Assembly: GCF_038396675.1 (NCBI RefSeq) | Contig: NC_088931.1 | Location: 59,205,001-59,269,000, forward strand | Length of the DNA: 64,000 nt | Source: Hydra vulgaris | Lineage: Eukaryota > Cnidaria > Hydrozoa > Anthoathecata > Hydridae | Reading direction: 5' to 3' | Position numbers and translations under genes: made by a program | The notes under the pieces: model-generated | What the model saw: only the letters and a program-made list of their open reading frames with translations | What the model was told of the DNA's origin: nothing | The model's database searches: none | Shown: one piece after another, positions 54,601 to 58,298 of the stretch | Numbering within the stretch: position 1 is the first letter of the stretch | Layout: every line of letters starts with the position of its first letter

Positions 54601-54720
54601 GGAAGTATCCAGAAGCATGCAGAAGCTTCCAGAAGTTTCCAGAAGAAGCATCCAGTAGCATCCAGAAATATCCAGAAACATTCAGAAGCATCGAAAAGAA
54701 GCATCTAGAATCTTCCAGAA
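54601..54720 (+). promoter_or_regulatory. Heat-shock-element array in transposon 3 copy 1
   Basis: From 54601 to 54645 the sequence splits into nine 5-bp units alternating nGAAn and nTTCn. The last five (54621-54645: AGAAG CTTCC AGAAG TTTCC AGAAG) are perfect, and two of the first four are degenerate. Weaker units continue to about 54720. Three or more contiguous inverted nGAAn units are the known binding site of the HSF1 trimer. The array lies 100-145 bp upstream of the TATA box. Function is inferred. Confidence 0.75.
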
Positions 54721-54744
54721 CAGGTTCACACAGGTTCATTTTAC

Positions 54745-54785
54745 TATATAAGAGACATGTTAATCAACATGTAATTCAGTCAGTA
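54745..54785 (+). promoter_or_regulatory. TATA box and candidate initiator of transposon 3 copy 1
   Basis: TATATAAG at 54745-54752, and TCAGTC (initiator-like) at 54777-54782, about 32 bp downstream. The same pair is present in copy 2. Confidence 0.65.
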
Positions 54786-54786
54786 T

Positions 54787-54981
54787 ATGGAAGTCAATCA
54801 GTCAGTATTATCAAGACAGTTTATCGAAGTGAGTTTTATCAAAGTGTTTTATCGAAGAACATCAATAGAAGAAGTGAAATACAACAAGTGTTTCATTACA
54901 TCAATACAGTCCACATCCAACCAAGACTTTGTGTTCCACAGAGCATTATTGTATCATCACAAGATAAATGTAACACGGTAA
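54787..54981 (+). CDS. 64-codon leader frame of transposon 3, possible first exon
   Basis: An ATG directly after the candidate start site opens 64 codons (MEVNQSVLSRQFIEVS...HKINVTR). At its end, ACACG|GTAAGC looks like a donor, and TTTTTATGACTTCAAG (55029) looks like an acceptor. Splicing the 52-bp intron would run the frame straight into the transposase (...NVTRAKMAPDSLG). Copy 2 (58062-57868) keeps the same frame and splice signals with a single amino-acid change. Without splicing it would be an upstream ORF. No known domain. Confidence 0.45.
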   Translation: MEVNQSVLSRQFIEVSFIKVFYRRTSIEEVKYNKCFITSIQSTSNQDFVFHRALLYHHKINVTR

Positions 54982-55018
54982 GCCTTGAGAAGCGTGATTA
55001 TTTATTTTTATAATTTTT

Positions 55019-56046
55019 ATGACTTCAAGTGCAAAAATGGCTCCCGACAGTCTTGGATTGGAACTAAGAAAGAAAATTATTGACGATTACGTAAGTGGAA
55101 TGTCACAAAAAAGTATTTGTGATAAATATCGCGTGAAAAAATGGACCGTATCAAGACTATGTTCCAAATATCGTTCTACGGGGAAGTTGGCAGCAGATAA
55201 TAAAAATGGAAGACCGCGTTCCACCACTTCTAGAGAGGATTCTATGATCGTCAGATCCGTCAAGAATGATCCCTGGACATCATCAGTCGAGATACAAAAG
55301 CAGTTAGAGCTGCCAATATTGGACCGAACAATCAGACGACGTGCTGTTGAAGCCGGATTGTTTTCTCGACGCCCTGCAAAGAAACCGCTGATTTCACTAA
55401 AAAACCAGAAGAAAAGACTCCTGTTTGCTACATATCTCATATTGACTGGAATGTGCAGAAATGACGAACTGTCCTGTTCAGTGATGAATCGAAGTTCAAC
55501 ATCATTGGGAGCGACGGCATTTGCCGTGTACGTCGATCAGCTGGAAAACGCCTCGATTTACGTTACTGCCATAAGACCGTGAAGCATGGTGGAGGCAATG
55601 TAATGGTCTGGAGGTGTTTTTCTGCTAACGGTCTAGGTCCAATACATCGAAACTATGAAATAATGGACTGTTTCATGTATAAAAATATCCTGAAAGATGT
55701 TATGTTAGCTCATGCTGAATGGAATATGCCAATAAAATGGGTTTTTCAGCAAGACAACAATCCGAAACACACTGCAAAAGTAGTCAAGCAGTGGTTTCAA
55801 GACAACCACCTATCGGTGATGGATTGGCCGCCTCAATCTTCGGATCTCAACCCTATTGAGAATCTGTGGGAGATCGTCAGCCGCAGAATTAATCGTGAAG
55901 GTGTTCGTAATAAGGATCAACTTTTTGAACAAATCCTAAAGGCCTGGGCAGCGATTCCACAAAGTTTCATTGATCACCTGATCGAATCTATGCCTCGAAG
56001 ATGCCAGGCTGTGATCAACAACAAAGGATTCGCCACGAAATATTGA
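55019..56046 (+). pseudogene. Tc1-like DD34E transposase, transposon 3 copy 1
   Basis: Start MTSSAKMAPDSLGLELRKK (ATG 55019) or MAPDSLG (ATG 55037) if the leader is spliced. Paired helix-turn-helix: SQKSICDKYRVKKWTVSRL and LDRTIRRRAVEAGLFSRR. Catalytic residues are SDESKF (Asp), QQDNNPKHTA (Asp) and [11 protein letters not shown] (Glu), with 34 residues between the last two. Lesions are two extra bases near 55432 (copy 2 lacks them) and a TGG-to-TGA change just after, around codon NDE; the rest (55579-56046) is open to the stop. The copy is therefore inactive but very recent. Confidence 0.88.
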
Positions 56047-56301
56047 TAGCGAAATACAGCTTGGTCAACATTTTGTCGAGTTGCACTTGTTTTGTCCAGA
56101 AGGAAATCAACTTTTCTAATACTTTTGATTAATTTATTAATTTTCGTGTACAAATAATGAACTTTGTGATGAATAAAACTTGAAGAACTTTGTCTCTAAA
56201 CAGTTAAATAGTTATTTCTCTAAATTGAACAAATGCAGCACTTTCATACAAAGAAACTAAATTAGCATTGTTTGGTCGCACTCGTTTTGTCCAATACTGT
56301 A

Positions 56302-56950
56302 TATATATATATATATATATATATATATATATATATATATATATATATATATATATATATATATATATATATATATATATATATATATATATATATATAT
56401 ATATATATATATATATATATACAGATATATATACATATACCTATATACATATACCTATATATATATACATATATATATATATACATATACATATATATAC
56501 ATGTATATATATATATATATATACATATATATAATTATATATATATATATATATATACATACATATATATATATATATATATATATATATATATATATAT
56601 ATATATATATATATATATATATGTATATATATATATATATATATATACAGATATATATACATATACCTATATACATATACCTATATATATACATATATAT
56701 ATATACATATATATATATATATATATACATATATATAATTATATATATATATATACATATATATATATATATATATATATATATATATATAAATATATAT
56801 ATATATGTATATATATATATATATATATATATGTATATATATGTATATATATCTATATATATATATATATATATATATATATATATATATATATATATAT
56901 ATATATATATATATATATATATATATATATATACACACATATATATATAT
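56302..56950. repeat. Complex (TA)n block with 226-bp direct duplication
   Basis: TA repeat with ordered interruptions. ACAGATATATATACATATAC starts at both 56421 and 56647, followed by the same CTATATACATATACC pattern, so about 226 bp is duplicated in tandem. It joins the two opposed copies of transposon 3. Confidence 0.85.
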
Positions 56951-56956
56951 ACATAT

Positions 56957-57830
56957 TCTGCGGTTGACTGCGGTTGATCTCCCACAGGTTCTCGATAGGG
57001 TTGAGATCCTGAAATTGAGCCGGCCAATCCATCACCGATAGGTGGTTGTCTTGAAACCACTGCTTGACTACTTTTGCAGTGTGTTTCGGATCGTTGTCTT
57101 GCTGAAAAACCCATTTTATTGGCATATTCCATTCAGCATGAGCTAACATAACATCTTTCAGGATATTTTTTATACATGAAACGGTCCATTATTCCATCGT
57201 TTAGATGTATTGGACCTAGACCGTTAGCAGAAAAACACCTCCAGACCATTACATTGCCTCCACTATGCTTCACGGTCTTATGGCAGTAACGTAAATCGAG
57301 GCGTTTTCCGGCCGATCGACGTTCACGGCAAATGCCATCGCTCCCAATGATGTTGAACTTCGATTCATCACTGAACAGGACAGTTCGCCATTTCTGCATA
57401 TTCCAGTCAATATGAGATGTAGCAAACAGGAGTCTTTTCTTCTGGTTTTTTAGTGAAATCAGCGGTTTCTTTGCAGGGCGTCGAGAAAACAATCCGGCTT
57501 CAACAGCACGTCGTCTGATTGTTCGGTCCAATATTGGCAGCTCTAATTGCGTTTGTATCTCGACTGATGATATCCAGGGATCATTCTTGACGGATCTGAC
57601 GATCATAGAATCCTCTCTAGAAGTGGTGGAACGCGGTCTTCCATTTTTGTTATCTGCTGCCAACTTCCCGTAGAACGATATTTGGAACATAGTCTTGATA
57701 CGGTCCATTTTTTGACGCGATATTTATCACAAATACTTTTTTGTGACATTCCACTTACGTAATCGCCAATAATTTTCTTTCTTAGTTCCAATCCAAGATT
57801 GTCGGGAGCCATTTTTGCACTTGAAGTCAT
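56957..57830 (-). pseudogene. Tc1-like transposase, transposon 3 copy 2, C-terminus lost
   Basis: Same protein as copy 1: MTSSAKMAPDNLG start, HTH motifs, WRTVLFSDESKF (Asp, in frame here), [10 protein letters not shown] (Asp), NPIENLWE (Glu) just before the break. A missing G near 57668 and an extra A near 57165 shift the frame. Comparison of the two copies shows which lesions are private to each. Confidence 0.88.
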
Positions 57831-57867
57831 AAAAATTATAAAAATAAATAATCACGCTTCTCAAGGC

Positions 57868-58062
57868 TTACCGTGTTACATTTATCTTGTGATGATACAA
57901 TAATGCTCTGTGGAATACAAAGTCTTTGTTGGATGTGGACTGTATTGATGTAATGAAACACTTGTTGTATTTCACTTCTTCTATTGATGTTCTTCGATAA
58001 AACACTTTGATAAAACTCACTTCGATAAACTGTCTTGATAATACGGACTGATTGACTTCCAT
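57868..58062 (-). CDS. Leader frame of transposon 3, copy 2
   Basis: The same 64-codon frame as at 54787-54981, with Lys for Gln at one position and the same putative splice donor at its end. Possible first coding exon of the transposase. Confidence 0.45.
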   Translation of the reverse strand: MEVNQSVLSRQFIEVSFIKVFYRRTSIEEVKYNKCFITSIQSTSNKDFVFHRALLYHHKINVTR

Positions 58063-58096
58063 ATACTGACTGAACTACATGTCGATATACATGTCT

Positions 58097-58104
58097 CTTA
58101 TATA
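58097..58104 (-). promoter_or_regulatory. TATA box of transposon 3 copy 2
   Basis: TATATAAG on the minus strand, in the same context as copy 1 and 57 bp from the edge of the GAA/TTC array. Confidence 0.65.
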
Positions 58105-58160
58105 GTAAAATGAACCTGTGTGAAATCGTTCTGAACGATTCTAGATGCTTCTTATCGATG

Positions 58161-58298
58161 TTTCTGGAAGCTTCTGGATGCGTCTGGATGCTTCTGGATG
58201 TTTCTGGATGCTACTGGATGCTTCCAGATGCTTCTTCTGGAAACTTCTAGAAGCTTCTGCATGCTTCTGGAAACTTCTGGAAACTTCTGGATACTTCC
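58161..58298 (-). promoter_or_regulatory. Expanded heat-shock-element array, transposon 3 copy 2
   Basis: 58234-58298 divides into thirteen contiguous pentamers alternating nTTCn and nGAAn, eleven of them perfect (for example CTTCT GGAAA CTTCT AGAAG). 58161-58235 is a second block in another 5-bp phase, opening with three perfect units (TTTCT GGAAG CTTCT) and continuing with GGATG-type degenerate units. Larger than in copy 1, so the array length varies within the family. Confidence 0.78.

What the first reader, a model, noticed from the sequence alone, without database searches (positions are those of the whole stretch)
54601..58298. A Tc1-like transposon family carrying heat-shock-element arrays upstream of its transposase
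Both copies have alternating nGAAn/nTTCn pentamers in strict 5-bp register between the terminal repeat and a TATA box. Copy 1 has five perfect contiguous units (54621-54645); copy 2 has eleven perfect of thirteen (58234-58298) plus a second block (58161-58235). This matches the HSF1 consensus far beyond the usual three units. The other Tc1-like elements and the mariner in this window lack it. A transposon that fires on heat or stress, and that spreads HSEs to new loci, is the most attractive reading. HSE-bearing Helitrons are known in nematodes; I know of no described Tc1 case, but I could not check.
Basis: partly seen in the sequence, partly recalled or inferred. Interest (0 to 1): 0.88.

Follow-up and report, generated by a model that had tools for sequence, protein, structure and literature searches.

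The report
Hydra transposon with heat-shock promoter
A Tc1-like jumping gene, most probably in the Hydra genome, carries a heat-shock-type control region in front of its own transposase gene, and its many copies appear to supply most of the strongest heat-shock-factor sites in that genome; heat induction itself has not been tested.

Summary
Both copies are DD34E Tc1-like elements with IR/DR ends. The window lies in a 911.5-Mb, 15-contig genome, most probably Hydra vulgaris AEP.

Runs of three or more perfect units occur upstream in 39 of 41 copies (whole-element sample), 30 of 30 loci (UTR-only query; 4 shared with the first sample, one array partly deleted) and 15 of 16 open-frame copies. A strict 5-unit HSE occurs 2342 times genome-wide against 22 for the reversed pattern. 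Of the first 65 clusters listed, 62 belong to this family (59 by 23-base string, 8 of those checked by DNA; 3 by DNA).

Best reading: an HSF-driven transposase promoter in a stress-tuned transposon that has spread HSEs. Anatomy and copy-wide presence are shown; HSF binding and heat induction are inferred. The mechanism is known in DIRS-1, ONSEN and Helitron1_CE; my open-access searches found no Tc1/mariner case. Host hsp promoters and the HSF gene could not be searched.

The parts
54321..56299 (+). Copy 1: full-length Tc1-like element, TA on both sides
   Evidence: CAGTATTGGACAAAA ... TTTTGTCCAATACTG ends with TA flanks; PF13358 DDE_3
54321..54539 (+). Copy 1 left inverted repeat with outer (54328) and inner (54514) GGACAAAA direct repeats (IR/DR type)
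56080..56299 (+). Copy 1 right inverted repeat with inner (56097) and outer (56292) direct repeats
54601..54721 (+). Copy 1 HSE array (10-bp GAAnnTTCnn-type units)
54621..54645 (+). Copy 1: five perfect contiguous nGAAn/nTTCn units
54707..54721 (+). Copy 1 promoter-proximal perfect 3-unit HSE AGAATCTTCCAGAAC (-71 to -57 from the predicted start)
   Evidence: perfect at the anchored position in at least 30 of 41 copies and 20 of 30
54745..54752 (+). TATA box TATATAAG
54775..54784 (+). Initiator-like TTCAGTCAGT; predicted +1 at about 54778 (33 bp from the first T of the TATA box)
54785..55036 (+). Predicted 5' leader with a possible short intron GTAAGC...TTCAAG (about 54979-55029; splicing not tested)
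   Evidence: read from the sequence; 243 of 246 identical between copies 1 and 2 from 54791 to 55036
55037..56046 (+). Copy 1 transposase frame, broken (frameshift and an in-frame TGA)
56958..58588 (-). Copy 2: same family, 3' end lost at a TA microsatellite
58128..58298 (-). Copy 2 HSE array
58234..58298 (-). Copy 2: 11 of 13 perfect units
   Evidence: by eye; best segment 58234-58288 score 9
58128..58142 (-). Copy 2 proximal HSE, damaged (AGAATCGTTCAGAAC)
58097..58104 (-). Copy 2 TATA box
58065..58074 (-). Copy 2 initiator-like TTCAGTCAGT
57133..57812 (-). Copy 2 transposase N-terminal part (HTH_Tnp_Tc3_2), broken

Best explanation
This is a young, high-copy Tc1-like (DD34E, IR/DR) DNA transposon family whose transposase promoter is built like a heat-shock gene promoter: a long, length-variable array of heat-shock half-sites, a proximal canonical 3-unit HSE about 60 bp upstream of the predicted start, a TATA box and an initiator. 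Most likely HSF trimers bind the array cooperatively under heat or other proteotoxic stress and switch on the transposase, so that transposition is tuned to host stress. Each insertion then deposits a ready-made HSE cluster. Shown: anatomy, presence in nearly every copy sampled (open-frame copies included), and dominance among strict 5-unit HSEs in the part of the genome listed. Inferred: HSF binding, heat induction, transposition bursts, effects on neighbours.
For: Array far above chance (observed 9 and 5; maximum 4 in 200 whole-window shuffles; 0 of 5000 local shuffles of either array reach it). Whole-element sample: score >=5 in 32 of 41 and a perfect run >=3 in 39 of 41, while 39 matched 3' regions never exceed 2. 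Query without the array (UTR only), 30 loci delivered of 40 scored: 30 of 30 score >=3 and 26 of 30 >=5, against a maximum of 2 in 60 end windows of the same loci; 28 of 30 hold two or more canonical 3-unit HSEs. Open-frame copies found with a protein query: 15 of 16 read carry it. 37 copies with both anchors hold at least two canonical 3-unit HSEs each, median 4. TATATAAG to TCAGTCAGT is 31 bp in 29 of 41 copies (my tally). Genome: 2342 strict 5-unit sites versus 22 for the reversed pattern; 62 of the first 65 clusters are this family (59 by string, 3 by DNA). Hydra vulgaris induces HSP70 at 33 C for 90 min (PMC2908143, passages). TcMar-Tc1, as a whole superfamily label, is among the putatively active TE families of Hydra (PMC12220107, section 5).
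Against: No expression, HSF-binding or transposition data. Many TTC half-sites read ATC (median per array 14 GAA but 5 TTC). The array behaves as a 10-bp tandem repeat, so its units are not independent observations. Divergence of the 15-bp proximal HSE (1.55%) is hardly below that of its surroundings (1.7-2.0%) and was not tested for significance, so there is no sign of selection on dispersed copies. 9 of 41 copies score below 5 and L061 and L079 have no array at all; L099 has lost its left half. P0126, from another assembly, lacks it. Copies 1 and 2 themselves cannot make full-length transposase. Capture from a host hsp promoter could not be tested. Three strict HSE clusters in 65 are not this family.
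Confidence: 0.72

Rival explanations
1. A 10-bp minisatellite that happens to read as half-sites. It expands and contracts by slippage and has no HSF function.
For: Array length steps of 10 bp (32 of 37 lengths end in the same digit); divergence and shared variants are highest in the array (partly inflated there by misaligned units); many units carry ATC instead of TTC.
Against: It sits directly upstream of a TATA box and initiator, together with a proximal canonical HSE that is intact in at least 30 of 41 and 20 of 30 copies. A random 10-bp unit reads GAAnnTTCnn in some rotation only about 0.24% of the time (my estimate, uniform bases). It is present in 15 of 16 open-frame copies.
Confidence: 0.15
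2. The array is a cis-site for transposition (transposase or a bending host factor), like subterminal repeats of other DNA transposons, not a promoter element.
For: It lies near the inner direct repeat and is in helical phase (inference).
Against: One-sided: the 3' region never scores above 2 in 39 copies. By eye it resembles neither direct repeat, and it lies just upstream of the TATA box.
Confidence: 0.05
3. The array is HSF-bound, but its main consequence is for the host: a sink for HSF or a set of distributed stress enhancers, with little heat-dependent transposition because piRNAs or chromatin silence the transposase.
For: About 1500 clusters, extrapolated from the first 38.85 Mb of contig 1, could compete for HSF. 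A Hydra vulgaris gene model (LOC124814402, P0122) includes the array region.
Against: 26 of 118 scored transposase matches are stop-free (hand count), which fits recent activity. No titration data.
Confidence: 0.08

Closest known systems
Helitron1_CE / HSE-bearing Helitrons of Caenorhabditis (PMC6927752, passages read)
   Same: DNA transposon with many HSEs upstream of its own transposase; [quoted passage not shown] the C. elegans Rep-Helicase gene has 14 HSEs and rises on heat shock
   Different: Rolling-circle Rep/Hel element, not a DDE cut-and-paste element; there HSF-1 binding and induction are measured, here they are not
DIRS-1 of Dictyostelium (PMC2685390, passages)
   Same: Heat-shock promoter inside the mobile element, in its inverted terminal repeats
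   Different: Retroelement; here the array lies just inside the inverted repeat
ONSEN copia element of Arabidopsis (mentioned in PMC6927752)
   Same: Heat-activated element that makes nearby genes heat-responsive
   Different: LTR retrotransposon; plant
TCN3/TCN12 LTR elements of Cryptococcus (PMC12810828, passages)
   Same: Putative HSEs in the element's promoter, heat-linked mobility
   Different: LTR elements with one or two putative HSEs
Tc1/mariner 'blurry' promoters: Bari, Sleeping Beauty, Hsmar1 (PMC6446368, passages)
   Same: Transposase promoters of Tc1/mariner elements
   Different: Those are described as AT-rich with weak core motifs and active in distant hosts; this one has a sharp HSE-TATA-initiator layout

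Membership tests
Tc1-like (DD34E) of the Tc1/mariner superfamily | TA target site and inverted terminal repeats | tested here: met
   Copy 1 flanked by TA on both sides; of 39 loci examined 23 had a readable 5' end (19 with TA) and 17 both ends readable, 12 of these with TA on both sides
Tc1-like (DD34E) of the Tc1/mariner superfamily | Transposase with HTH_Tnp_Tc3_2 and DDE_3 domains | tested here: met
   PF01498 E 1.4e-17 (copy 2) and PF13358 E 2e-13 (copy 1)
Tc1-like (DD34E) of the Tc1/mariner superfamily | 34 residues between second D and E | tested here: met
   Counted by me in the translation; invariant columns D245 and E280 among 19 relatives
IR/DR subgroup (Sleeping Beauty-like ends) | Two direct repeats within each long inverted repeat | tested here: met
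   GGACAAAA at 54328, 54514 and, on the other strand, 56097, 56292
Heat-shock (HSF-driven) promoter | At least three alternating nGAAn/nTTCn units upstream of a core promoter | tested here: met
   39 of 41 copies; 30 of 30 loci; 15 of 16 open-frame copies
Heat-shock (HSF-driven) promoter | TATA box and initiator at about 30 bp spacing | tested here: met
   TATATAAG to TCAGTCAGT 31 bp in 29 of 41 copies, 53 bp in 5 (a second TCAGTCAGT), 26 bp in 1, not scored in 6 (my tally)
Heat-shock (HSF-driven) promoter | HSF binding and induction by heat | not testable with these tools
Helitron | Rep/Helicase protein, no terminal inverted repeats, no TA duplication | tested here: not met
   DDE transposase, TIRs and TA flanks
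Host hsp promoter captured by the element | Homology of array-TATA-leader to a host hsp gene | not tested
   PF00012 and PF00447 searches of the own genome did not complete

The most novel reading that the evidence does not exclude
A Tc1 transposon acquired an HSF-responsive promoter, amplified through stress-timed transposition in Hydra, and now owns most of the strong HSF target sites in the genome, so that HSF activation wakes well over a thousand transposon copies and the host heat-shock network is rewired or damped by a transposon.
Probability: 0.3. Interest if true: 0.93.

Novelty: new variant of a known kind. Interest (0 to 1): 0.78.

Why it matters
If HSF binds these arrays, this would be, as far as my searches show, the first Tc1/mariner element run by the heat-shock system, in an animal that can be made transgenic and whose species differ in heat-shock response. 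It would make two open questions testable: whether stress-tuned promoters drive DNA-transposon bursts, and whether a transposon can take over or titrate a transcription-factor network. The same HSE takeover arising in nematode Helitrons and in a cnidarian Tc1 element would point to convergent evolution.

Tried and rejected
Relatives by protein: viral contigs gave none and then three distant hits (L034-L036, 27-32% identity over part of the protein); genome contigs gave none; phages DNA none. A 15-base promoter pattern in viral contigs gave 33 matches that I did not examine. A whole-element hit list seemed to show a subfamily lacking the 5' half (matches starting at query 283 or 663), as my notebook entry still says; fetching the DNA showed that most of these are ordinary members whose alignment had been broken by array length changes, so that idea was dropped. 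In one search I forgot that search loci are not turned to the query strand; one search repeats it correctly and one search is not used. Selection on the HSE was looked for in copy divergence and not found. Host hsp70 and HSF genes: searches did not complete. The three non-family strict HSE clusters (L125-L127) were suspected to be host hsp genes; 1.3 kb beside one of them (the other two not looked at) gave no hsp match in Pfam. No structure model was made: the transposase family is clear from sequence.
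Full report
WHAT WAS CHECKED. The two arrays are in the sequence exactly as described. Copy 1 (plus strand, 54321-56299) has five perfect contiguous units at 54621-54645. Copy 2 (minus strand, 58588 down to about 56958) has 11 of 13 perfect pentamers at 58234-58298. In 200 dinucleotide shuffles of the 64-kb window the best register score was 4, against 9 and 5 observed, and 0 of 5000 local shuffles of either array reached its score. 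Outside the two elements nothing in the window has a perfect run above three units, so the neighbouring Tc1-like frames and the mariner lack the feature.

ANATOMY. The element is a Tc1-like transposon: TA flanks, ends CAGTATTGGACAAAA, outer and inner direct repeats in each inverted repeat, HTH_Tnp_Tc3_2 and DDE_3 domains, and a DD34E spacing that I counted in the translation (columns D245 and E280). From the inner left repeat inwards come a 60-bp linker, the array (54601-54721), TATATAAG (54745), TTCAGTCAGT (54775), a leader of about 250 nt with a possible short intron, and the transposase ATG (55037). The array consists of 10-bp units of the type GAAGCWTCCA; in 37 anchored arrays 323 of 495 gaps between successive GAA are 10 bp, and TTC follows GAA at 5 bp in 144 cases. 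Both window copies are dead: copy 1 has a frameshift and a stop, and copy 2 is frame-shifted and has lost its 3' end.

WHICH GENOME. The window is in a 911.5-Mb assembly of 15 contigs. A protein containing the translated array is named 'LOC124814402 [Hydra vulgaris]'. PMC12220107 (section 5 read) gives 596 Mb as 65.3% of the H. vulgaris AEP genome, that is about 913 Mb, and its text implies 15 chromosomes. I therefore take the genome to be H. vulgaris, most probably strain AEP. This is an inference: the assembly is unnamed.

IS THE ARRAY A FAMILY FEATURE? Three samples were taken. (i) Whole-element query: 40 places scored out of 2177 candidates; the 39 others plus copies 1 and 2 make 41. A perfect run of at least three units is found in 39 of 41, at least five in 25 of 41, and a register score of at least 5 in 32 of 41. 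The two without are L061 (foreign DNA upstream of the TATA box) and L079 (array deleted). Matched 3' regions of 39 copies never exceed 2. The proximal HSE is perfect in 30 of 41; this is a lower bound, since a few copies were anchored a little off (L047, for instance, shows an intact one). (ii) A query that excludes the array (leader, 54740-54980): 40 scored of 241 candidates, 30 loci delivered; four of these (L084, L102, L105, L110) are also in sample (i) by their coordinates. 30 of 30 score at least 3 and 26 of 30 at least 5; 60 windows at the ends of the same loci never exceed 2. 28 of 30 hold two or more canonical 3-unit HSEs and two hold one; in L099 the linker and the left half of the array are deleted. 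(iii) Protein query: 118 scored of 27532 candidates, of which 26 have no stop inside (hand count). Upstream DNA of 16 of the 26 was fetched, and 15 of 16 carry the array with at least two canonical 3-unit HSEs; the sixteenth (L139) has other DNA inserted in the leader, so the array position was not reached. Before the genome search answered, a back-translation test on proteins from other assemblies pointed the same way: 7 of 8 proteins with this leader or array carry it, and P0126 does not; three of those seven (P0040, P0121, P0122) were first found with queries that did or could select for the array. Among 37 copies with both anchors the array is 110-181 bp, mostly in 10-bp steps, with a median of four canonical 3-unit HSEs and a minimum of two. 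All samples are the best-scoring members, so old, diverged copies are under-represented.

GENOME-WIDE WEIGHT. The strict pattern GAANNTTCNNGAANNTTCNNGAA occurs 1187 + 1155 times; the same pattern read backwards occurs 12 + 10 times. Only the first 100 places are listed, all on contig 1; they form 65 clusters in its first 38.85 Mb. 59 have the family's 23-base string within one difference at the eight free positions; of these, eight that I picked by hand along the contig were read and all eight align to the family's proximal HSE/TATA block. Of the six others, three are the family by DNA and three are not. So 62 of 65 belong to this family, 51 of them on the string alone. Scaling the density gives about 1500 clusters genome-wide, which is an extrapolation. 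Sites overlap within arrays, so 2342 sites are not 2342 loci.

MECHANISM. The layout (distal HSE cluster, proximal HSE, TATA, initiator, leader, transposase) is that of a heat-shock gene. The most economical reading is that HSF trimers bind cooperatively and drive transposase under stress. Steps shown: presence, placement, retention in nearly every copy sampled including open-frame ones, and restriction to the 5' side. Steps inferred: HSF binding, heat induction, stress-timed transposition, influence on neighbours. Retention on dispersed copies is not evidence of selection there: divergence from the column majority is 1.55% in the 15-bp proximal HSE, 1.7-2.0% around it and 2.2-2.75% in the frame, as expected for young copies decaying neutrally from a source that had the array. 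The argument for function is that the amplifying lineage carried it.

COMPARISON. Mobile elements with heat-shock promoters are known: DIRS-1 (PMC2685390, passages), ONSEN and Helitron1_CE (PMC6927752, passages; [quoted passage not shown] PMC8896005 (passages) surveys C. elegans transposons for factor motifs; in the passages seen, HSF-1 motifs are tied to Helitrons and the Tc1/mariner example is for LSL-1. Tc1/mariner promoters are described as AT-rich and 'blurry' with weak core motifs (PMC6446368, passages), the opposite of what is seen here. In PMC12220107 a term search of the main text found no 'heat shock', 'HSF' or 'motif'. Paper searches listed no Tc1/mariner element with an HSE promoter among the titles and abstract starts shown: 0 papers; 30 of 361 listed; 20 of 161; 20 of 663; 9 of 10; 12 of 41; 12 of 115; 15 of 18. 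They cover an open-access library only.

LIMITS. Host hsp70 and HSF could not be looked up because the genome tool did not complete, so whether the promoter was captured from a host heat-shock gene is open. Whether the more distant relatives (P0001, P0003) carry arrays is unknown.

Noticed in passing
L125, L126, L127 (G000 C1:34.643, 38.177 and 38.202 Mb): Three mutually similar loci (by eye) outside this family with runs of 6-7 perfect HSE units and a TATA-like box nearby; the neighbouring 1.3 kb of one shows only short frames without a hsp match (a weak, sub-threshold BED-like hit). Possibly a second HSE-promoted repeat or a host gene family.
   Followed up: partly
window 54049-54320, 56300-56956, 58589-58721: Both copies sit in or beside (TA)n microsatellites; many of the other copies with readable ends also have TA-repeat flanks.
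   Followed up: partly
P0122 (Hydra vulgaris LOC124814402); also P0040, P0121, P0123-P0125, P0127: Predicted proteins that are translations running through this transposon's array and, in all but P0040, its TATA and leader region; the one with a public name is annotated as an uncharacterized Hydra protein.
   Followed up: partly
P0001 and P0003: Transposases 80-83% identical to this family from other sources (lgn, jgi); the 118 scored matches of P0001 in this genome are 82-86% identical, so P0001 probably comes from another species. Whether these relatives carry the array is unknown.
   Followed up: no
L139: An open-frame copy whose leader is interrupted by foreign DNA starting with a T-rich stretch, probably a nested insertion.
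   Followed up: no
window 3581-6243, 42645-43094, 46019-47086, 44386-45156, 62705-63496: Window is dense in other mobile elements: reverse-transcriptase-like frames (recognised by eye), a mariner-like frame (PF13358/PF01359) and a piggyBac-like frame (PF13843).
   Followed up: no
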